Assembly: GCA_026003175.1 (NCBI GenBank)
Contig: BPGT01000006.1
Location: forward strand, 1 to 64,000
Reading direction: 5' to 3'
DNA from: Armatimonadota bacterium
Lineage (GTDB): Bacteria > Armatimonadota > HRBIN16
Length of the DNA: 64,000 bases
Shown: piece by piece, positions 1 to 43,770 of the stretch
How positions within the stretch are numbered: position 1 is the first letter of the stretch
Layout of the letters: every line of letters begins with the position of its first letter
Made by a program: the position numbers and the translations under genes
The notes under the pieces: model-generated
Seen by the model: only the letters and a program-made list of their open reading frames with translations
Told to the model about the DNA's origin: nothing
Databases searched by the model: none

Positions 1-165
1 ATCATCTGCCATCTCAGCGGTAACGTTGGTCAGCTCCCAGCGGGTACCGCACCGTGGGCACTCGCCGTCGTAGGTGTTCTGATACTGACCACCTACCAGC
101 TCCAGCTGAACCTGAGAACCGCAGGGGCAGGTAATGATGATGTACTGGGGATTGGTGTTGTACAT
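1..165 (-). CDS. Zinc-ribbon-like small protein (3' end outside window)
   Basis: The reading frame starts at the ATG at 165, preceded by an AAGGAG ribosome binding site, and runs open to the window edge (55 codons visible). It begins MYNTNPQYIIITCPCGSQVQ and has a CPCG pair followed about 25 residues later by a CPRCG pair. This spacing suggests a rubredoxin/zinc-ribbon knuckle. It is the last visible gene of the minus-strand accessory block. The role is unknown; the full length and any C-terminal domain cannot be seen. Confidence 0.6.
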   Translation of the reverse strand, partial: MYNTNPQYIIITCPCGSQVQLELVGGQYQNTYDGECPRCGTRWELTNVTAEMADD

Positions 166-190
166 GGCTTCTTAACTCCTTCTTGTTCCC

Positions 191-228
191 ATCCTGCTTG
201 TTTCTATCCTGCTTGTTTCTATCCTGCT
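191..228. repeat. 15-bp direct repeat in spacer
   Basis: The unit ATCCTGCTTGTTTCT occurs twice in tandem (191-205, 206-220), followed by a partial third copy to 228. It sits between two minus-strand genes. It is not a multiple of the 5-bp motif seen in the larger spacers of this block. Function unknown. Confidence 0.7.
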
Positions 229-239
229 CCGGTATGTTG

Positions 240-473
240 CTAACGTGTGTTCTCGTCAATGTTAGCTTCCTGCCTCTGGATGGTCTCCCTGACACGCTCC
301 CACGCTTCGTCCAGCTCGTCTCTGGTTAACTGCAGTCGCCACTGCTCCATATCGATAAGGTGCTGGTAAGCGAACAGGAGCATGTCCTCCAGATCCAGGG
401 ATTGCTCTTGCTGTTTCATGAACAGCACATCCTGTAACATGAACTCAACTGCTTCCTGTACCCGTTCGTCCAT
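240..473 (-). CDS. Small acidic helical protein, unknown function
   Basis: A 77-residue protein starting at 473 behind a strong GGAGGT site. It is rich in Glu, Asp and Gln, is predicted helical throughout, and has no Cys and no membrane segment. Short, acidic, helical proteins of this type are common in phage and plasmid early regions, but no family is recognised. It lies in the same orientation as its neighbours with a short spacer, so it probably belongs to the same transcription unit. Confidence 0.6.
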   Translation of the reverse strand: MDERVQEAVEFMLQDVLFMKQQEQSLDLEDMLLFAYQHLIDMEQWRLQLTRDELDEAWERVRETIQRQEANIDENTR

Positions 474-512
474 GTCGTATACCTCCAGATAATGTATTTG
501 TGCACGCCAGGT

Positions 513-1607
513 CTAACATGATAGCACTTCCAAGAGTGCCTCAACACCTTTGTCACCACGTACGCTATACTCCAGCACAAGCGCTTGCATGTCCTGACCG
601 GTCTCCACCTTCTGCCAGGTAACCTCATGCACAATGGGCTGGGTGTTCAGTATGCGGTCTATTAATGTAGCCAGATAGGGCAGACTGCCCTTGCAAAGCC
701 TCTCCAGAGCGTCGTCCAATCTGAAGGTTCTAATAAGCCTGCGTGCTTCCGCTTCCAGATTGGCATCTGGAGCCAGAACCCTGTACGAGCTTGCAGAGAC
801 GTCGTAATATGCATGGATCAGTAAGTTGTCTATGATGACCAGATTCCTGGCGTCCTTCAGATCCATGCCTCTGCGTAGATACTGCTCCATGGATGCAAGC
901 GATATCAGATCTGCAGCCAAACGACGACCATACAGGAGCAGATCGTCGTACCTATCGTATAGCGTATTCCTGAACTCACTTTTGGCTATCCGGGATTGAT
1001 AGTCCAGCGCATCTCTCAGAGTCTCGATAACGTGTCTGGAGTAATATGTATCCCTCATGCCGTACATGAGCTCTGCCCTTACTACAGCGTTGGTGAACCG
1101 ATCCTTGATAGACAGGGAGCTGATGAACTTGATGAAAGGAGCCGTGTATCTCGTAGCGTCCTCCCAAAGAGCCTGTTCACAGGCATCTTTCCATTCCCGA
1201 CGGAACCGCCTGAAGAACGTGCAGGCATCCCTGTGAGCCCGTTCCACTTCGTTACCGTACAGGTAGTGGTACATTCGAGAGCCGTCCGGGTTACTCAGAA
1301 TGGACTCCCTGAGCATCCCTTCTCCTGCGCGGATGAAGGAATCGCTGAAGGCTGCCCCATCATCGTATTCAGATACAGCAACTTCCATATCGCCTGCGCG
1401 TACAACAAACGTACCCTGCTCATCGATATGCCTGCCCGGTTTGTACAGGAGAGTGGTGCCAGGAGTGAGTTCTACCTCTCTCGGTTTCATAAGGTGCACT
1501 ACTCTGTCGGGCCATCTGGTGCAGGACGGGAATTCGTATGGGGCGTCGAACAGCTCAACGGCACGGCGTGAGATGTAACGCAGAAGGAATCTGTAGTTCT
1601 TGGCCAT
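513..1607 (-). CDS. Hypothetical protein, 364 aa, accessory block
   Basis: The open frame extends further upstream, but the start at 1607 (MAKNYRFLLRYISRRAVELF) is preferred because AGGAGG lies just before it. The product is soluble, rich in Arg, Asp and Tyr, with no signal peptide or membrane helix. The C-terminal half looks all-helical. No catalytic motif or known domain is recognised. The gene is followed closely by other unrecognised minus-strand genes, consistent with a phage-like or plasmid-like cassette. Confidence 0.65.
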   Translation of the reverse strand: MAKNYRFLLRYISRRAVELFDAPYEFPSCTRWPDRVVHLMKPREVELTPGTTLLYKPGRHIDEQGTFVVRAGDMEVAVSEYDDGAAFSDSFIRAGEGMLRESILSNPDGSRMYHYLYGNEVERAHRDACTFFRRFRREWKDACEQALWEDATRYTAPFIKFISSLSIKDRFTNAVVRAELMYGMRDTYYSRHVIETLRDALDYQSRIAKSEFRNTLYDRYDDLLLYGRRLAADLISLASMEQYLRRGMDLKDARNLVIIDNLLIHAYYDVSASSYRVLAPDANLEAEARRLIRTFRLDDALERLCKGSLPYLATLIDRILNTQPIVHEVTWQKVETGQDMQALVLEYSVRGDKGVEALLEVLSC

Positions 1608-1620
1608 GTTTGACCTCCTG

Positions 1621-2043
1621 CTAGCGGGAAGTGTTATGAAATAACGCGGACAGTTCAACCGGATACTCGAGCCTGTATTCATACCTTGGGATAGCTATCT
1701 GCGCTTGCATGTTGCCGGCTCTGTTGCACTCTATCATCAGGAAGGCATCCCACAGGTATCGCTCGCCTATCAGATCGACGACTTCCCTCCATTGTCTGTC
1801 GTTGATCAGGATGGGCGATTCCTGTTCCAGTGCCTTATCAAGATGCGGCAGGTCCAGTACAGGGATAACTTCACGGTCGATGACAACTACAGGCATTCTC
1901 CACAGGATGGACTGGTGCTCATCGAGCTGCTGAGCCATAGCCTGCATCCTGTCCAGCCTGGTTGATACCTCGTCACGGCTGTATCGCCGAACGATAATCC
2001 AGAGATCGCCTTCCTCAGTGATAAGCGGAATCACCAGATGCAT
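1621..2043 (-). CDS. Hypothetical protein, 140 aa
   Basis: The start at 2043 (MHLVIPLITEEGDLWIIVRR) is chosen because GAGGAGG sits at ideal distance, although the open frame continues to 2085. The protein mixes hydrophobic strands with Arg/Glu-rich helices and has no recognisable motif. Only 13 bp separate it from the next gene downstream, so the two are probably co-transcribed and translationally linked. Function unknown. Confidence 0.6.
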   Translation of the reverse strand: MHLVIPLITEEGDLWIIVRRYSRDEVSTRLDRMQAMAQQLDEHQSILWRMPVVVIDREVIPVLDLPHLDKALEQESPILINDRQWREVVDLIGERYLWDAFLMIECNRAGNMQAQIAIPRYEYRLEYPVELSALFHNTSR

Positions 2044-2054
2044 GGTTAGCCTCC

Positions 2055-2330
2055 TCATTGCCCAATTAACACCTTGTCCTGCCATTCCTCAGCCTCATGT
2101 AGCAGGTTGTGGAGTTCCAGCCTGGCACTGAAGTCGCCATCGTCTGCGTTATGAACGAGCTCCACGAATCGGCTTATCGGCAGGTGGTGGTATAGCACTT
2201 TGCTATCTACCAGGATAGCTGTGACCTCTGTACCGTCTCCATCTGATATCACCGCATAGCGGAACCGATAGACGGTGTTCCCTGTCTGATACCGGGCTTT
2301 GTCCACAAGGGCTACGTTGAGTGTTGACAT
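2055..2330 (-). CDS. Hypothetical protein, 91 aa
   Basis: Starts MSTLNVALVDKARYQTGNTV at 2330 behind GAGGTAG. It is a small soluble protein with an N-terminal beta-rich part and a Glu/His-rich helical end. There is no cysteine, signal peptide or known motif. It sits between two other unrecognised genes with gaps of about 10 bp. A shorter ORF in another frame across its start is taken to be a shadow. Confidence 0.55.
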   Translation of the reverse strand: MSTLNVALVDKARYQTGNTVYRFRYAVISDGDGTEVTAILVDSKVLYHHLPISRFVELVHNADDGDFSARLELHNLLHEAEEWQDKVLIGQ

Positions 2331-2336
2331 GTTTGA

Positions 2337-2996
2337 CTACCTCTGATTCCTCACGAACTGGATGCAATGTTCGATGATGCTTGCGAACTGTTCGTCGGAG
2401 ATGACCTCTGAGCATTTGGCGGACCTCAACGGGTACTTGTACCACCATAGCGCCCAGTCTGTCGGCTTATACAGGAAGTTCGGTCTGATAACGGCGCATC
2501 CACGCCGGTGTCCGGCATGACCTTCTTGCCGGATGATCTCCAGCAGCTTCTCCTCTATCCGCCGGTGGTAGTCGCAGGAGCACTTGATGGCAACTCCATG
2601 CCACCAGTCGTCTCCTTCAGTGGGCCAGCCTAACTGCTGGTATACCGGTTTGATGATCTCTTCCAGCTTCTGCTCGTATTGCTTCCTGAAACTGCCTCCC
2701 ATATAGGCCAGACGACCGTACTGGTCCTCAAACCGCTTCCATACCTGCTGGAAGCAATCCTCCCGGTGCTGAAGCTGGTCTCGCCATTTCCAGAAGGGAT
2801 GGTAGTCCCAGCCGCAGTCACACTCCTGGTCGTAGTCTGGGAGCAACTCGAACAAGCCGCACCGGAATTCGTCGTAGACCGAGATGTCCAGCACATGGTA
2901 GAGTGGCAGGAATATCTGCTCCCAGCGTTTCCTGTCCGGGATAGGATGGCGTTCGTAGTACTGGTCGCCTTCTTCAATGCGAGCAATGTCCAGCAT
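2337..2996 (-). CDS. Hypothetical Trp/Tyr/His-rich protein, 219 aa
   Basis: Starts MLDIARIEEGDQYYERHPIP at 2996 with CAGGAGG upstream. It has an unusual composition, with many Trp, Tyr, His and Asp residues. A CDCGWDYH motif in the first half and a KCSCDYHRR motif in the second suggest a metal-binding protein of two similar halves. This is inference; no family is recognised. The 5' leader contains a strong hairpin at 3045-3074, and the spacer upstream is the first 5-bp repeat block. Confidence 0.6.
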   Translation of the reverse strand: MLDIARIEEGDQYYERHPIPDRKRWEQIFLPLYHVLDISVYDEFRCGLFELLPDYDQECDCGWDYHPFWKWRDQLQHREDCFQQVWKRFEDQYGRLAYMGGSFRKQYEQKLEEIIKPVYQQLGWPTEGDDWWHGVAIKCSCDYHRRIEEKLLEIIRQEGHAGHRRGCAVIRPNFLYKPTDWALWWYKYPLRSAKCSEVISDEQFASIIEHCIQFVRNQR

Positions 2997-3044
2997 TTGA
3001 GCCTCCTGTGGTGGAATATCTGTCGTTGCGTGGTGGAATATCCG

Positions 3045-3074
3045 CCGGCAGATGGATTGGATTCCACCTGCCGG
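3045..3074 (-). promoter_or_regulatory. Hairpin in leader of the 2337-2996 gene
   Basis: CCGGCAG (3045-3051) pairs with CTGCCGG (3068-3074). A further TGGA/TCCA pair lies inside after one mismatch, leaving a 6-nt loop. It lies 50-80 bp upstream of the start codon at 2996. No T-run follows on either strand, so it is more likely an RNA structure or protein site than an intrinsic terminator. A 12-bp direct repeat (TGGTGGAATATC) sits between it and the gene. Confidence 0.5.
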
Positions 3075-3310
3075 CTTGTTTGCCGTGCCTCGCCTTGGCT
3101 AGCCTAGCCAGGACTCGCCCCGCCCAGACAAGACTCGCCTTGCCTGCCACGACGCGCCCAGCCGCACCATGTCGCGCCGTGTCGTGCCTTGCCAGGCCTG
3201 CCCAGCCTCGCCTTGCCACGCCTGGCCTCACCATGCCGTGCCTGCCATGCCAAGCCAAGTCTTGCCATGCCACGACGTGCGATGCGGTTCCTAGCCCAGC
3301 CAAGCCAAGC
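3075..3310. repeat. Degenerate pentanucleotide repeat block 1
   Basis: On the plus strand the spacer is built almost wholly of 5-bp steps of the form GCCNN (for example GCCTT, GCCGT, GCCAA), with occasional slips such as GACTC or ACGTG. The same register persists for over 200 bp. The stop codon of the gene at 3311-4018 abuts it exactly. A 5-bp period cannot be coding. It is one of three such blocks in this element. Confidence 0.85.
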
Positions 3311-4018
3311 CTATTTGCCGGATAGAGAATCTATTATCAGGTCCGGCAAACCTTCCAAACTGCTCAGCACGGGAACACTCGGATCTATCTCTACCTGCTG
3401 TGTAGCCTGCCAATCGCCACGGTCTATCAATATACCTCTCGCACCACATTGCAGTGCAGGTAGAATGTCAAACTGATAACTGTTTCCCACCATGACCACT
3501 CGCTGTGGATTGTGCTGAGCATCAAGCATCTCCAGCAATCGCAGGAAGCTATCTCTGTCCTTCGTGGCTGTGACCACCACATGGTGGAAATAGCCCCGAA
3601 TCCCAGACAGGTCTATCCTGCGGTTCTGGTGTTCCATATCACCGGCTGCGGAGTAGAGCACCAGCAGATGACCTCGTTTGCGGAGCTCCTCCAGCACAGG
3701 TATCGTCTCCGGATAGAGTTCCGGCGGAGCGTCCAGCAGATGACGGAATGAGTAAATCGCTGCCTCTACTCCTGGATTGAACGGGATACCGTGTCTGGTT
3801 GCCAGAATGGTGTAGGTAATCACCAGACTCTCAATGAACCGTTCCGGTCTCAGACCACGATACGGTACACGGGCACGATCCAGATCGTCCAGCTGCTGTA
3901 TGATGTCCTCACCATAGATACCTATTTGCCCTAGCATCTGTTTGAACTCAGTCTTGATCCTCTCGTACACCGACTGTGTTCGCCAGAGCGTATCGTCTGC
4001 ATCAAGCACTACGGTCAC
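3311..4018 (-). CDS. HAD-superfamily hydrolase
   Basis: A 235-residue haloacid-dehalogenase-fold phosphatase-type protein. Motif I DADDTLW is at the N-terminus, with the nucleophile Asp and acid Asp two apart. A motif II Ser follows VLYSAAG. The motif IV region VGNSYQFDI carries Asn where most members have the first Asp. The GTG at 4018 is preferred as start because GGAGGTAGA precedes it exactly as it precedes the ParB-like gene next door; ATG at 4030 is an alternative. Phosphate-ester substrates are typical of the family, but the substrate here is unknown. It is flanked on both sides by 5-bp repeat blocks. Confidence 0.8.
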   Translation of the reverse strand: MTVVLDADDTLWRTQSVYERIKTEFKQMLGQIGIYGEDIIQQLDDLDRARVPYRGLRPERFIESLVITYTILATRHGIPFNPGVEAAIYSFRHLLDAPPELYPETIPVLEELRKRGHLLVLYSAAGDMEHQNRRIDLSGIRGYFHHVVVTATKDRDSFLRLLEMLDAQHNPQRVVMVGNSYQFDILPALQCGARGILIDRGDWQATQQVEIDPSVPVLSSLEGLPDLIIDSLSGK

Positions 4019-4061
4019 GTCTACCTCCATAGAGTAATTCCCACCCGCCACAACCCAGATG

Positions 4062-4287
4062 CCTCGCCAGGACTCGCCGTGCCGTGCGCCTCGCCCGCTG
4101 CCTGTGCCACGCCCTCGCCTCTGCCTGCCTTGCCTCGCCACGTCCTGCCGAGTCGCGCCTTGCCAAGCCCAGTCACGTCATGCCTAGCCGAGACTTGCCA
4201 GGTCCTGCCTTGCCATGCCTTGCCTCGCCTTGCCCGGCCGTGCCACGCCATGCCGAGCCAAGCCTAGCCGTGCCACGCCCGCCGAGA
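4062..4287. repeat. Degenerate pentanucleotide repeat block 2
   Basis: Same GCCNN architecture as block 1, filling the spacer between the stop codon at 4288 and the leader of the HAD gene. It contains a 47-bp stretch (4146-4192) found again at 5132-5178 with a single mismatch. The side next to the HAD gene carries a TTCCCACCCGCCACAACCC flank that is nearly repeated beside block 3. Confidence 0.85.
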
Positions 4288-5016
4288 CTAGCTCTCTACA
4301 GGTTGCTTACGTTTGCGGGCAGTCTTGAACTGGCTCAGGAAAGCACCGAGAGCTTTGTACAGGAGCCGCATCTCCCGGATGAGCTCACCGTTGCCAGTCG
4401 GTACCAGCCCGTTCTCCAGAGCAGACCTTAGCTGCTTCACCTGGAAGGTGATGGAACTGCCGAGCACCTTGCTGTGAGCGGATGCCTGATCCTCTGTCAT
4501 CTCGGTGCCGGAGAGGTGACGAACGGCGAACTTGACCGGAATGGGCTTTGGTTCATCGCCTCCGTTCTGTACACGAGCCTCACGCACCAGCAGACGCTGC
4601 GTGTACTCCAGAGGACGACCGAACAGACGAGCCAGATGGGGAACGTCTACCCCATACGGTCTCAGCAGTTGAGCTGCATGTACCAGGTCCTGAGAAGTGA
4701 GAGCCTTGCCGTGCTTGATGTTGGCACGCACGGCCTCCTCAACCATCGACCTCTCGTCCTCGTAGTGCTTGATGACAGCCGGAATCTCTGCTTCCGGACC
4801 GAACTCGGCGATGAACGCCTCCCTGCGGTGAGCACCGTCTACCAGGATGCCCGTGTCGGATACAAGGATAGGTGGCAGATTCTCACCGGCACGGATGGCG
4901 AGCTGCAGATGGTAGACGTGTACCCGGTCTATCCCTCCGGCACGGGGATAGATGCGTTCGTCCAGGATTAGCTGGTTTGCTCGAATCCTGGTAGTTGCAA
5001 CGGTATCGTCAGTCAT
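4288..5016 (-). CDS. ParB/Srx-fold (ParB-like nuclease domain) protein
   Basis: A 242-residue protein starting MTDDTVATTRIRANQLIL at 5016 behind AAGGAGGTAGA. Residues about 10-90 match the ParB/sulfiredoxin fold: a LPPILVSD strand, then VDGAHRREAF, the conserved box that binds nucleotide in ParB relatives. A helical region follows with an HTH-like LVHAAQLLRPYGVDVPHLAR segment and a basic C-terminus. Such proteins act in plasmid or phage partition, transcription control or as nucleases; no ParA partner is visible here. The leader is shared in sequence with that of the HAD gene. Confidence 0.75.
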   Translation of the reverse strand: MTDDTVATTRIRANQLILDERIYPRAGGIDRVHVYHLQLAIRAGENLPPILVSDTGILVDGAHRREAFIAEFGPEAEIPAVIKHYEDERSMVEEAVRANIKHGKALTSQDLVHAAQLLRPYGVDVPHLARLFGRPLEYTQRLLVREARVQNGGDEPKPIPVKFAVRHLSGTEMTEDQASAHSKVLGSSITFQVKQLRSALENGLVPTGNGELIREMRLLYKALGAFLSQFKTARKRKQPVES

Positions 5017-5064
5017 ATCTACCTCCTTACGTGATGTGTTATCCCACCCTCCACAACCCTGATG

Positions 5065-5355
5065 CCTTGCCTCGTCGTGCCGGGCCCTGCGTTGACGTGC
5101 CACGCCCCGCCTCGCCTGCCTTGCCTCGTCTTGCCGAGTCGCGCCGTGCCAAGCCCAGTCACGTCATGCCTAGCCGAGCCCTGCCTGCCTCGCCAGGACT
5201 CGCCGTGCCATGTCGGGCCTCGCCTAGCCTCGCCTTGCCTGCCTTGGCCCAGCCAAGTCAAGCCTGCGCCCGCCACGCCTCGCCTTGCCTTGCCTGCCGT
5301 GCCGTGCCGAGCCCTAGCCGTGCCATGCCCCGCCGCGCCAGCCTGCCTGCCAGGA
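5065..5355. repeat. Degenerate pentanucleotide repeat block 3
   Basis: The longest of the three GCCNN blocks, between the leader of the ParB-like gene and the in-frame stop (5356-5358) of the next gene upstream. Shares a 47-bp near-identical core with block 2. The exact abutment to a TAG stop is seen at all three blocks and helps identify the true C-terminus of the frameshifted gene at 5356-6097. Confidence 0.85.
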
Positions 5356-6097
5356 CTACCTGGTATCGTTCTCGGTGGGCGGGACGAACGTCGGTTTGGG
5401 ATCTGCCAGGGCTACCGCCGCGATCTCAAACAAACCCCAGCCGAGACCGTGACTCTCACGACTGTCCGGTCTGCCTTCACCGATACCGACCTGCAAGCCT
5501 ACACGAGCCAGCAGGTTGGTCACATCGGCCAGGCTGAACTGAGACTCGTCCCATGAGATGGCTCACGTTCGCCGCCCACTGTCGCCACATCGGACGGGCA
5601 CGCAGGTCCAGCACGCCGGTAGCGTTACGCACGGGCATCACCGACATCTCGGGCTCGCCCTCAATCTTGACAAGCGGCGTACCGTCCACTGCGTCCAGCC
5701 CGTCGGGGGCGACGAACAGCGACAGCTTCGCCAGAGTCATGCGGTATCCGACCAGTCGACAGGCGGAGATGAGCGCGTTGCGGAAAGCACTTGCGGGGAT
5801 GCCGACCCAGCCCTCGGAGCTGACATGCATCGCCTGCTTGTAATCTTCCTCAAAGTTGCGAGGCTCACGAGATTTGCCCTTGCGGGCTCGCTGACCTGCC
5901 TCGTGCTGCTCCCGTATCGCCTGCATCGCCTTCTGCGAGAACCGTGCCTGGCAATACGGAGTGATGCCGACGATGCGGAACTGGGCTGAGGCGAACCGTG
6001 GCGGCTGGATGACAACCTCCTGACCAGCCGAAGCGGAAAGCTCCAGCGTCGGATCGGAGCCGTTGCTCCTGGATTTGGATTTGGTTGCAACTGGCAT
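5356..6097 (-). pseudogene. Phage-type conserved protein with +1 frameshift
   Basis: Starts MPVATKSKSRSNGSDPTLEL at 6097 behind GGAGGTAAG and reads well to about 5565 (WRQWAANV). From there the coding signal moves to the +1 frame, which continues WDESQFSLADVTNLLARVGL and a Gly-rich GIGEGRP to GLGWGLFEI stretch before TAG at 5356. The joined product would be about 246 residues. The unshifted frame ends at 5477 with an unlike tail. The family resembles conserved hypothetical proteins of phages and mobile elements; I cannot name it. The shift may be decay, a sequencing error or programmed frameshifting. Confidence 0.65.
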
Positions 6098-6121
6098 TGT
6101 ACTTACCTCCTTGTTGGTTGT

Positions 6122-6457
6122 TTATGGGATATCTACACCTACCGCACCGGCCAGGTTCGGTCTGGGAGCTCTCACCGGGAACTGCTCATCGGTGAGGTCC
6201 ACACCTTCACCTGCACCGGACGCCAGCGGGTATTTCCGTTCCAGGTCTTTGAGCACATCCGTCAGCGTCTCCTGATACTGCTCTGGGAACGATGACGCCA
6301 CCTCCCGGATACGGTCTATCCCGCAACCGGACTTGAGCAGATCTTCACATCTGTCGTAGAGCTCCTCGTCCAGCGAGACACCGAACGTGTCCGCTATGGC
6401 GAACGCCTCTTGCAGAGTGCTCTTTATCGTCGTCATCACGATGTCCAGCTCGCTCAT
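6122..6457 (-). CDS. Small helical protein, 111 aa
   Basis: Starts MSELDIVMTTIKSTLQEAFA at 6457; the start overlaps the stop of the upstream gene by 4 bp (ATGA), indicating translational coupling. The product is acidic and helical with two Cys and no recognisable domain. Its proline-rich C-terminal tail may be flexible. It sits 24 bp before the frameshifted gene, so the genes probably form one operon. Function unknown. Confidence 0.6.
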   Translation of the reverse strand: MSELDIVMTTIKSTLQEAFAIADTFGVSLDEELYDRCEDLLKSGCGIDRIREVASSFPEQYQETLTDVLKDLERKYPLASGAGEGVDLTDEQFPVRAPRPNLAGAVGVDIP

Positions 6458-7257
6458 AGATGTGCTCCTGTCAACTTCATGGTTTCAATCGCTATCCTGA
6501 CGTGACTCCCGAACTGGAGATGGGTCAGTGTCCGTTCGTCGGACTTAAAGACCGCATAAACGTCGCCGGAGGAATGGGAGAGCAGAGCACGACGTGGCGA
6601 TGTCTCTACCACCAGCATCGTCCCGCTCTCATTACGCTGCTTCAACTGCGCACCGAGCTCACCGAGCAACAGGTCGTCCATGTTGCCGTAGAAGCCCTTG
6701 CCGAGCCTTATCGTCAACTCGCCCGGATAGTCCAGCTGCGGTAACTGCCCCGTATCCAGAACGGTGGCTGCACGGACGACGGACAACGGTATGAAGTACA
6801 CCATGTGGGTGTATGGCGACTTCTGGGAATATATCAGACAGGGCTCTGTGCGCTCCTCAACGGGCTCCGTCTCTATGACAGGGAGCTGCAAATCCTCCGG
6901 AAGCTCCAGACAGTGCATAGCCCCCTTATGCTCTACACAGAGCGCCATCCAGCTCTTATCATCAGTCTTGACCAGCTTCAACTGTAGTTGCGCCGTCTGC
7001 TGGTTACAGACCTGACGAGCGATATCATCACTGCACCAGATGACCTTACCGTGCTCGTTGTAGTGCAATGCACGTCGGAGCTCCGGACTGGTGATATCCT
7101 GAGCGGTGGCGACAGTTACCGTGCCGATGTTCAGCGAAGCCTCTACCGGCATTGAACAGTTGAGTAACCGGGCTGCGGTCTCCAGAACCGGTTGCAGGTC
7201 GTCTGTGAACGCAACCAGCGGCGAACGGTAACTGTCTTCAAGTATCAGGGCGTACAT
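6454..7257 (-). CDS. Hypothetical protein, 267 aa
   Basis: The start at 7257 (MYALILEDSYRSPLVAF) is chosen because GGGGAGGTGT lies upstream; the open frame runs on to 7425 but crosses a terminator, which excludes that part. The protein is soluble with mixed alpha and beta content. Its first half contains a CSDD segment. Its second half has a FIPLSVVRAATVLDTG stretch and a basic C-terminus. The overall layout of repeated beta-rich segments is reminiscent of clamp-like folds, but no similarity can be claimed. It is the first gene of the operon running down to 5356. Confidence 0.55.
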   Translation of the reverse strand: MYALILEDSYRSPLVAFTDDLQPVLETAARLLNCSMPVEASLNIGTVTVATAQDITSPELRRALHYNEHGKVIWCSDDIARQVCNQQTAQLQLKLVKTDDKSWMALCVEHKGAMHCLELPEDLQLPVIETEPVEERTEPCLIYSQKSPYTHMVYFIPLSVVRAATVLDTGQLPQLDYPGELTIRLGKGFYGNMDDLLLGELGAQLKQRNESGTMLVVETSPRRALLSHSSGDVYAVFKSDERTLTHLQFGSHVRIAIETMKLTGAHL

Positions 7258-7326
7258 AGTCGTACACCTCCCCTTAAGAGAACTCACTGGAAAGAGATAT
7301 GAGGAACCGGCGGAGAAGGTACCGCA

Positions 7327-7363
7327 TGTGCAAAATAAGGCGCCGGTATTTATCCGGCGCCTT
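7327..7363 (-). terminator. Intrinsic terminator behind the sigma-like gene
   Basis: A perfect 10-bp stem, AAGGCGCCGG (7337-7346) with CCGGCGCCTT (7354-7363), has a 7-nt loop. On the minus strand it is followed by a TTATTTT tract. It lies 36 bp past the stop of the sigma-like gene, separating that gene from the operon that begins at 7257. Confidence 0.85.
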
Positions 7364-7399
7364 GAACCGCAGAGAAGGAGGATGGAAGGATGTGACGCA

Positions 7400-8000
7400 C
7401 TAAACCCAGCAAGGAGGATCTGCACGCAGAATCTCTAAAGCCCTCTGGATATGCTGATGCACCCGCTGTCTGGACATGTTCAATAACCTGCCTATCTCGT
7501 CCATAGTGCATTCTCTCGTGCCGATACCAAAGTAACAGACGATGCATTGATACTGCAACGTGTTCAGTCGTTCCCTGAGATACCTCTGCCAGGAGAGGAC
7601 GCTGAGTATGCTGTCATAAGAAGGTTCCTCATAACTCAGGGCGTTCAATACCTCATAATAGGCTGGATGTTCTTCATTCTCTAACACGCTCTCTATGGGC
7701 AACCAGGACGGACCGGTGCATCGGTTCCTGAAGTCGCATTGAGACACGACGCAGAGATACCTGTTGTTCCTTATCCATTCCAGCATGGCATGCACCAGTC
7801 TGGTATACAACAGCGTGCTGAACTTCGTGCCTCGTGATGGATCGTAGTCCAGAATGGTCTGCCAGAGCACTATCCTGGACTCCTGCAATAACTCCTCACG
7901 CTCGTAACCGTTCCTGGCATACCGACGCACGAGCTCTGTATATCATGCGCTCGTAAGCGCTCCAGAACTGGTTGAACCTGGTCTCGTCCTGCTGCTGCAT
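7400..8000 (-). pseudogene. Diverged RNA polymerase sigma factor with +1 frameshift
   Basis: The first frame starts MQQQDETRFNQFWSAYERMI at 8000 behind GAGGG. After about IYRA (near 7931) the coding signal moves to the +1 frame as VRRYARNGYEREELLQES, and continues to the stop at 7400. The result is about 199 residues. The region-2-like part is LLQESRIVLWQTILDYDPSR followed by GTKFSTLLYTRLVHA. The region-4 helix-turn-helix is TMDEIGRLLNMSRQRVHQH. Regions 2 and 4 without region 3 resemble phage or ECF-type sigma factors. It could direct transcription of the block. The frameshift leaves its activity uncertain. Confidence 0.7.
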
Positions 8001-8017
8001 ACTTTCCCTCACCACTG

Positions 8018-8194
8018 GAGATAGATAGCGGAACAGGGGGCATTAAGTGCCGGCATTGGGCATAAAAATTGGGGAGGCGGTAGATGCCTCCCCAGACAAA
8101 CAGAACACGGCAACGAGAGAGTTGGAGACGAGGAGGGAAGCCTGTGGGCGGGCTGGTTTTGATATACAATTGCCTTACCAGAGGAGATAGATAG
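8018..8194. repeat. Pair of GAGATAGATAG direct repeats
   Basis: The 11-bp sequence occurs at 8018-8028 and 8184-8194 in the otherwise gene-free stretch upstream of the sigma-like gene (8001-8394). They flank the minus-strand terminator at 8066-8093. They could be regulator sites or footprints of a short duplication; nothing more is visible. Confidence 0.45.
8066..8093 (-). terminator. Intrinsic terminator upstream of the sigma-like gene
   Basis: GGGGAGGC (8071-8078) pairs with GCCTCCCC (8086-8093) around a 7-nt loop. On the minus strand it is followed by AATTTTTA. It lies 66 bp upstream of the start codon at 8000 with no recognisable gene behind it, so it may act as an attenuator in the sigma gene leader or end a small RNA. 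Confidence 0.7.
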
Positions 8195-8244
8195 GAATGC
8201 TCGCATCAAATGGTGCCAGGCTCAGGTCAATTTCAGTTTCCTAC

Positions 8245-38002: not shown

Positions 38003-38570
38003 CTACACCGCCGCTGACCCGGGTTGCACGGCTCGGTATAACCTAGACAGCAGCAAGCCATAACAACCCTTCACCAAGCCTTTCCACCTCCACAACGTTT
38101 CCACACTGCCCTGCTGATACCGCAACACCCGAACAGGTCAGCCAGGTTGTTGCTGACCACCGATGCCGACATGTTCCTCATCACTTCCGCGGTGCCTGGT
38201 TGGTCAACCTCTCCCCCTTCCCCTCTCCTGCGAGGAGAGGGGAGCCGCGCATCGGGCGCCTCCTTCCCTCGTAGGGAAGGGGGGCAGGGGGTTAGGTTAC
38301 CAAACTTTAACCTCTCCCCCTTCCCCTCTCCTGCGAGGAGAGGGGAGCCGCACGTCGGACGCCCCCTTCCCTCGTAGGGAAGGGGGCAGGGGGGTTAGGT
38401 TTCTCCCCAACGGGTTAAAGTGATGTCACTCACTGTTTCGACGTACCAAAGAGATACCCTGCAGATACAGAGCACTGGCCGCCCAACTGCCACCCTCCAG
38501 CGGTTTCTGCTGCTCTACCAACTCGCCCGCTCCGCACGCTACACCCCGTTCAGGTAGTCCTTGCGCTATC
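38003..38570 (-). pseudogene. RHS C-terminal fragment 2 (degraded orphan tip)
   Basis: Nucleotide-level match to the main RHS gene over the region around 41760-42050 (the CGAGC-rich VACGAGELVEQQ stretch, then LYLQGISLVRRNSE). It is broken by a short deletion, by small indels and by a repeat array inserted at 38206-38400. After the usual core end it reads WRWKGLVKGCYGLLLSRLYR to a TAG at 38003, a tip unlike the other two. No start codon or full domain remains, so it is a remnant of an orphan C-terminal cassette. Confidence 0.75.
38206..38400. repeat. Palindromic repeat array A (2 units)
   Basis: Two units of about 100 bp (38206-38308 and 38309-38400). Each has a CCCCTCTCCTGCGAGGAGAGGGG palindrome-type core and a second CCCTTCCCT/AGGGAAGGG dyad, ending GGTTAGGTTA. 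The array splits the RHS fragment exactly between GTGCCT and AACGGG, which are adjacent in the intact copy near 41870, so it is a clean insertion. Confidence 0.85.
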
Positions 38571-43253: not shown

Positions 43254-43741
43254 ACCTCTCCCCCTTCCCCTCTCCTGCGAGGAGAGGGGCGCAGGCGCGG
43301 ATGCCCCCTTCCTTTGTAGGGAAGGGGGTCAGGGGGTTAGGTTACTAGACTTTAACCTCTCCCCCGTCCCCTCTCCTACGAGGAGAGGGGAGTTGCCCCC
43401 TTCCCTCGCAGGGAAGGGGGTCAGGGGGTTAGGTTACCAAACTTTAACCTCTCCCCCTTCCCCTCTCCTGCGAGGAGAGGGGCGCAGGCGCGGATGCCCC
43501 CTTCCTTTGTAGGGAAGGGGGTCAGGGGGTTAGGTTACTAGACTTTAACCTCTCCCCCTTCCCCTCTCCTGCGAGGAGAGGGGAGCCGCGCATCGGGCGC
43601 CCCCTTCCTTTGTAGGGAAGGGGGTCAGGGGGTTAGGTTACTAGACTTTAACCTCTCCCCCTTCCCCTCTCCTGCGAGGAGAGGGGAGCCGCGCGTCGGA
43701 CGCCCCCTTCCTTTGTAGGGAAGGGGGTCAGGGGGGTTAGG
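43254..43741. repeat. Palindromic repeat array B (5 units)
   Basis: Five units of about 92-103 bp begin near 43254, 43354, 43446, 43547 and 43650. They share the two nested dyads of array A and alternate spacers (a CGCAGGCGCGGATG type and a GCCGCGCATCGG type). The array fills the gap between the RHS start and the stop of the TlpA fusion gene. The strong hairpins could terminate transcription in both directions. Confidence 0.85.
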
Positions 43742-43770
43742 TCCAACCTGCGGTATCATCCTTCAGAATG

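What the first reader, a model, noticed from the sequence alone, without database searches (positions are those of the whole stretch)
3075..5355. Three spacers built of a degenerate 5-bp repeat that begins at a stop codon
Blocks 1-3 hold several hundred bp of GCCNN steps in one register. Each fills a complete gene-to-gene spacer and abuts a TAG stop directly. On the coding (minus) strand each block is NNGGC-type and so forms the 3' end of a transcript. Spacers of this kind do not match CRISPR, REP or terminator structures that I know. They could be recombination or packaging sites, RNA-processing elements or a mutational relic of an element-specific process.
Basis: seen in the sequence. Interest (0 to 1): 0.75.

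Follow-up and report, generated by a model that had tools for sequence, protein, structure and literature searches.

The report
Phage guide-RNA arrays (VIPR system)
The odd five-letter repeats between these phage genes are almost certainly arrays of guide RNAs for VIPR, a newly described CRISPR-related system that phages use to switch off genes of rivals by reading only two letters in every five.

Summary
Three spacers (3078-3310, 4047-4287, 5063-5355) read (GGCNN)n on the minus (coding) strand, with lag-5 autocorrelation z of 9-11. They occur nowhere else in the 4.1-Mb genome. In IMG/VR, 104 of 120 loci found by the same pattern hold such degenerate blocks, against 2 of 120 for a permuted control pattern. 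The neighbouring gene is the key: 83 of 111 block-bearing viral loci encode one family (phrog_4652) within 1 kb, median gap 13 bp. Its profile matches the solved SUSP1 Vipr protein (PDB 36pp, E=5e-43), and its predicted fold matches CRISPR Csm3/Cas7. A 2026 Doudna-lab preprint (PMC13142463) describes this pair: Vipr plus vrRNAs of alternating GGY/NN that read DNA through the NNs. The window therefore holds a VIPR locus: frameshifted vipr, block, ParB-like accessory gene, block, HAD gene, block, in the end of a large contractile-tailed provirus. Additions here: a GGCA four-base unit that punctuates arrays into runs of about 7-13 repeats, the ParB-like accessory gene, exchange of whole guides between 98%-identical proviruses, and one suggestive target in a host promoter. 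New member of a known kind.

The parts
5063..5355 (-). vrRNA array B3, (GGCNN)n on the minus strand, directly after the vipr stop codon
   Evidence: Period-5 autocorrelation z 10.6; parsed units with GGCA punctuation; orthologous blocks in G004 and G003
4047..4287 (-). vrRNA array B2, directly after the stop of the ParB-like gene
   Evidence: z 8.6; whole guide segments replaced relative to the 98%-identical G004 copy
3078..3310 (-). vrRNA array B1, directly after the stop of the HAD-hydrolase gene; four GGCA-delimited segments
   Evidence: z 11.1; parse; nearly identical in G004
5356..6097 (-). vipr (phrog_4652; RAMP/Cas7-like). A single-base frameshift near 5558-5566 splits the frame in this genome; the copies in G004 and G003 are intact
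   Evidence: HMM hits on both halves, 5.7e-45 and 1e-11; profile against PDB 36pp SUSP1 Vipr E=4.7e-43; alignment of the frameshift; intact relatives
4288..5016 (-). ParB-like gene, candidate vipr-accessory protein (vap) of this VIPR type
   Evidence: phrog_1033 ParB-like E=4e-11; homologs in all nine matching loci or copies lie next to vipr, usually with a GGCNN block
3311..4030 (-). HAD-superfamily hydrolase between arrays B2 and B1 (the true start may be a GTG a few codons in); not conserved with VIPR elsewhere
   Evidence: Pfam PF00702 E=2e-14; 0 homologs in the other block loci
4040..4056 (-). G-rich 3' end of array B2 (RNA: GGGUUGUGGCGGGUGGG), candidate vrRNA tail
   Evidence: Same 17-mer with one difference after B3 and a close version in G003
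5043..5059 (-). G-rich 3' end of array B3 (RNA: GGGUUGUGGAGGGUGGG), candidate vrRNA tail
3044..3075 (-). Hairpin that closes array B1, conserved in G003 while the array between has changed
   Evidence: 13-bp stem; local fold about -29 kcal/mol

Best explanation
The three spacers are arrays of VIPR guide RNAs (vrRNAs) belonging to a VIPR locus at the end of a large contractile-tailed provirus. The operon on the minus strand reads vipr - array B3 - ParB-like accessory gene - array B2 - HAD gene - array B1. In RNA sense each array is GGC/NN repeated: the GGC triplets are the scaffold held, one repeat per subunit, by Vipr, a small RAMP protein of the Cas7/Csm3 fold, and the variable NN pairs together spell a DNA target in which one base is skipped after each pair. 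A bound complex silences the target gene, typically of competing phages or satellites. Shown here: the repeat, its orientation, its tight linkage to vipr in many viruses, the family's match to the solved Vipr protein and to the RAMP fold, and the rapid replacement of whole guide segments. Taken from the preprint and not tested here: vrRNA expression, DNA binding, the one-base-skip code and silencing. Inferred: one repeat per subunit, that the 4-nt GGCA unit marks the joints between successive guides, and that the ParB-like protein is the accessory factor. In this genome vipr carries a frameshift, so the system may be inactive here although it is intact in two sister genomes.
For: Block statistics; absence elsewhere in the genome. 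IMG/VR: 104/120 degenerate blocks against 2/120 for the control motif. vipr within 1 kb in 83 of 111 block loci, median gap 13 bp, 81 of 83 on the same strand; phrog_4652 in 10 of 117 control loci. Profile match to PDB 36pp 'SUSP1 Vipr' E=4.7e-43, all other hits E>=0.05. Confident AlphaFold model (pLDDT 94.8) whose best PDB matches are Csm3/Cas7 subunits, probability 1.00. Published VIPR definition: Vipr plus vrRNAs of alternating GGY/NN, 9-16 repeats, beside vipr in phages and proviruses (PMC13142463). Among 61 relatives vipr is found only in G003 and G004 (G000's copy is frameshifted), the only genomes with long block sets. Same blocks and family in Cheoctovirus mycobacteriophages and cyanophage Cy-LDV1.
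Against: No confident natural target was found: five of six guides tested had no match in ten genomes of the genus, and the sixth had one 21/24 match; an exact scan of IMG/VR with one guide found nothing. vipr is frameshifted in this genome. The middle base of GGC is only 63% conserved in the window, with GAC and GTC units in RNA sense, looser than the published GGY. 28 of 111 block loci show no vipr in the DNA held, though several are cut short.
Confidence: 0.94

Rival explanations
1. Decayed VIPR array: in this particular genome the blocks are relics, because vipr is frameshifted and no longer made.
For: One extra base relative to G004 and G003 splits the vipr frame; phrog_4652 is not detected at threshold in G000; arrays B2 and B3 in G000 have lost several GGCA joints that G004 keeps.
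Against: Draft assembly: a single-base error is possible. GGC positions are still well kept. Loss would be recent, since the element is 98% identical to the intact G004 copy.
Confidence: 0.4
2. Recombination linker or degenerate minisatellite: the blocks share about 70% identity by design and let phage recombinases exchange gene modules; no guide function.
For: Segments are exchanged and duplicated between blocks, for example an exact 49-bp duplication in G004 B2.
Against: Neutral tandem repeats decay at every position, whereas here GGC stays and NN varies. The linkage to a single RNA-binding RAMP family and the fixed transcription orientation are not expected.
Confidence: 0.03
3. RNA-structure or termination element: (GGCNN)n forms two-tier G-quadruplexes or, antisense, a C-rich Rho-loading site.
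For: Blocks lie between operon genes; G-rich sense strand, C-rich antisense strand.
Against: In the window the middle G is the least conserved base while the outer bases are held, opposite to a quadruplex need. No terminator-like class explains the linkage to Vipr.
Confidence: 0.02

Closest known systems
VIPR (Viral Interference Programmable Repeat), SUSP1 and P. fulva type II systems; PMC13142463, PDB 36pp
   Same: Same protein family (E=4.7e-43), same alternating GGY/NN RNA code, location in intergenic spacers beside vipr, phage or provirus carriage, small accessory gene
   Different: Here the guides lie in long tandem arrays (about 45-60 units) without tails between them, jointed by a 4-nt GGCA unit; the accessory gene is ParB-like; the scaffold is G(G/A/U)C; vipr is frameshifted in this genome. 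Whether this equals the preprint's 'staggered arrays' (fig. S18) could not be checked
Class 1 CRISPR RAMP proteins (Csm3/Cas7)
   Same: Predicted fold, glycine-rich C-terminal loop, filament on a guide RNA (the last from general knowledge)
   Different: No identical repeats with spacers in the blocks; about 10-14% sequence identity; 5-nt instead of 6-nt RNA pitch
TRAP, trp RNA-binding attenuation protein (from general knowledge)
   Same: Binds RNA triplets separated by two free bases, 5-nt pitch
   Different: TRAP binds (G/U)AG in an 11-mer ring and its NN carry no information; unrelated fold

Membership tests
VIPR | vipr gene (RAMP homolog) beside the repeats | tested here: met
   phrog_4652 gene directly upstream of B3; intact in G003 and G004, frameshifted in G000
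VIPR | Vipr has the RAMP fold (RRM core, G-loop) | tested here: met
   AlphaFold pLDDT 94.8 on family member L056; Foldseek top hits Csm3/Cas7, probability 1.00; conserved C-terminal G.GD.RP....G.F
VIPR | vrRNA of alternating GGY/NN with hypervariable NN | tested here: met
   GGC/NN at 5-nt pitch with nearly all NN types; the middle base is looser in the window
VIPR | 9-16 repeats per vrRNA | tested here: inconclusive
   Runs between 4-nt units are mostly 7-13 with a mode of 9-11, but vrRNA ends are not mapped
VIPR | Invariant structured 3' tail | tested here: inconclusive
   Shared G-rich 17-mer after B2 and B3, hairpin after B1; no tail between segments
VIPR | Accessory gene (vap) in the locus | tested here: inconclusive
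   The ParB-like gene lies next to vipr in 9 of 9 matching loci or copies; a different family (Mattes gp53 / Cy-LDV1 g33) is found in 28 block loci against 2 control loci. Not compared with the preprint's vap1-6
VIPR | Carried by phages or proviruses | tested here: met
   Element has baseplate wedge, virion protein, endolysin, primase, sigma factors, RNA ligase
VIPR | NN pairs match targets with a one-base skip | tested here: inconclusive
   One 21/24 match at a host promoter, other guides none
VIPR | vrRNA expressed, bound to Vipr, DNA binding and silencing | not testable with these tools
   Needs RNA-seq and biochemistry
CRISPR array | Identical repeats separated by unique spacers | tested here: not met
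   3-nt scaffold with 2-nt variable parts; no long identical repeat
REP/BIME or terminator | Inverted repeats / hairpin with T-run | tested here: not met
   Direct GGC units, no palindromic unit; no Rfam match in the blocks

The most novel reading that the evidence does not exclude
GGCA-jointed, tail-less vrRNA arrays with a ParB-like accessory protein form a distinct VIPR architecture, in which one long transcript is cut at GGCA into guides. In addition, the B1 guide of this provirus silences a chromosomal VWA-domain gene of its own host by binding its promoter, so VIPR also serves host takeover.
Probability: 0.15. Interest if true: 0.75.

Novelty: new member of a known kind. Interest (0 to 1): 0.56.

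Why it matters
VIPR was described only in 2026 and is proposed as an ancestor of CRISPR effectors. This locus and the survey recover it independently from the repeats alone. They add natural members (Cheoctovirus mycobacteriophages, a cyanophage, a bacterial provirus), a simple DNA signature for finding more, a likely punctuation rule for splitting arrays into guides, a provirus whose sister copy carries both VIPR and type I CRISPR-Cas, and a pair of 98%-identical proviruses in which guide turnover can be read. Whether the preprint's data set already lists some of these members could not be checked.

Tried and rejected
G-quadruplex and Rho ideas were dropped on the conservation pattern. TRAP-like ring binding was a useful lead only as an analogue. 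The recombination-linker idea was dropped because of the vipr linkage. Plasmids: no similar block found. A 719-bp block used as a blastn query against phages found nothing. Guide-to-target scan across 3.1 Mb of held loci: no excess for any skip length over the reversed-order control. Mycobacteriophage guide against IMG/VR: two matches, about chance level. Rfam, including hammerheads, on block loci: only tRNAs. In the 28 block loci without vipr, no significant RAMP relative was found in the DNA held. Literature search before the protein was identified found nothing. A search of the Mycobacterium family was not possible with the handles held.

Full report
WHAT IS THERE. Minus-strand genes in window 1-8200 are separated by three blocks that read (GGCNN)n in the sense of transcription. 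Period-5 identity is 0.55-0.61 against about 0.30 in dinucleotide shuffles, z 8.6-11.1. Long GCCNN runs occur nowhere else in the 4.1-Mb genome.

NOT LOCAL. In 84,980 cellular genomes a longer, ten-unit pattern gave 9 of 120. Two of the nine other genus members, G003 and G004, carry the same blocks. Of 198 blocks parsed, 142 begin within 60 bp of a same-strand stop of an ORF of at least 60 aa, most often 4-20 bp after it. Named phages with such blocks are Cheoctovirus mycobacteriophages (Mattes, Quico, ByChance, Brocalys, Donkeykong and others) and cyanophage Cy-LDV1.

THE NEIGHBOUR GIVES IT AWAY. Genes next to the blocks share a C-terminal motif of the form AG..vGvGD.RP..yGrF. A profile from one of them finds members in 83 of 120 block loci against 10 of 117 control loci. 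Of 111 loci with a parsed block, 83 have the gene, all within 1 kb, median gap 13 bp, 81 on the same strand. All 72 aligned members belong to phrog_4652, unknown function. Against the PDB the profile has one strong match, 36pp 'SUSP1 Vipr protein', E=4.7e-43. An AlphaFold model of one member (pLDDT 94.8) matches Csm3/Cas7 subunits with probability 1.00.

THE KNOWN SYSTEM. PMC13142463 (bioRxiv 2026.04.26.720920 v2) describes VIPR: a Vipr RAMP protein and vrRNAs of alternating GGY/NN, mostly in phages and proviruses, in which the NNs base-pair with DNA at a one-base skip and silence genes of competing elements. The window's vipr is 5356-6097. It carries a single-base frameshift near 5558-5566 that is absent from both G004 copies and from G003. 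Among 61 relatives the family is detected only in G003 and G004, the same genomes that carry the long block sets.

ANATOMY ADDED HERE. (i) Units are 5 nt (6788 of 7202), but 328 are 4 nt and 257 of those are GGCA, although A follows GGC in only a third of 5-nt units. Runs between 4-nt units cluster at 7-13, mode 9-11, close to the published 9-16 repeats per vrRNA. In G004 B2 a 49-bp segment ending in GGCA is duplicated exactly. I infer that GGCA marks joints between guides; the preprint's 'staggered arrays' may be the same thing, but its supplement could not be read. (ii) Between G000 and G004, 98% identical over the element, whole segments of B2 and B3 are replaced or shared between blocks, while B1 is nearly unchanged. 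(iii) B2 and B3 end in the same G-rich 17-mer, B1 in a strong hairpin conserved in G003. (iv) The ParB-like gene after B3 has homologs in nine loci or copies, all next to vipr and nearly all beside a block, including five unrelated contigs. (v) G is avoided at the last N before the next GCC, which avoids GGCC.

TARGETS. Six guides were searched in the ten genus genomes under the one-base-skip rule. Only the first B1 segment gave a match: 21 of 24 bases at G000:C2:430311-430345, just upstream of the start codon of a VWA-domain gene, over its likely -10 region. Order-shuffled guides reach this score about 0.003 times per genome in a 131-kb sample, so about 0.1 for all guides and genomes tried. 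The sister genomes lack the site, and this segment has the least regular GGC scaffold. It is a lead, not a result.

THE ELEMENT. The window is the start of its contig; element DNA ends near 8.2-8.6 kb, beside tRNA-Arg and tRNA-His. In G004 the same element continues with baseplate wedge, virion protein, endolysin, primase, sigma factors, RNA ligase, B12-dependent ribonucleotide reductase with an intein, Cas3 and a Cas7-family protein with a CRISPR array, and DndB. It is a large contractile-tailed provirus.

VERDICT. Observation confirmed; the proposed functions are replaced by guide-RNA arrays of a VIPR system. Membership rests on protein family, fold, repeat code and location, all met; expression, targeting code and activity were not testable or inconclusive here.

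Noticed in passing
L136:4948-6269 (G004:C5:187948-189269): CRISPR array of about 20 repeats (GTTTCTATCCTACTTAGGTATGTACCTGAC) with Cas3 and a Cas7-family (DevR) gene inside the same provirus, so one virus carries both VIPR and type I CRISPR-Cas. Window 177-240 holds degenerate remnants resembling this repeat.
   Followed up: partly
G000:C2:430311-430345 (L389:6312-6346): 21/24 one-base-skip match of the first B1 guide segment in the promoter region of a VWA-domain gene of the host chromosome.
   Followed up: partly
L137:7637-10438: B12-dependent ribonucleotide reductase interrupted by an intein, encoded by the provirus.
   Followed up: no
L136:17620-18804 and L139:3588-4787: DndB-like gene (PF14072, E about 5e-37) at the tRNA end of the provirus in G004 and G003; absent at that place in the window copy.
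   Followed up: no
window 43254-43742 and 38206-38401: Tandem 103-bp units (AACCTCTCCCCCTTCCCC...) in the host chromosome in two arrays.
   Followed up: no
L082:4250-5190, L002:500-1210, L098:540-1462: Viral VIPR arrays in which GGCNN tracts alternate with near-identical non-repeat segments of about 30-95 bp, which look like vrRNA tails.
   Followed up: partly
L001, L011, L060, L120 and 24 further IMG/VR loci: Block loci without a detectable vipr in the DNA held: possibly divergent VIPR types, satellites carrying guides only, or truncated contigs.
   Followed up: partly
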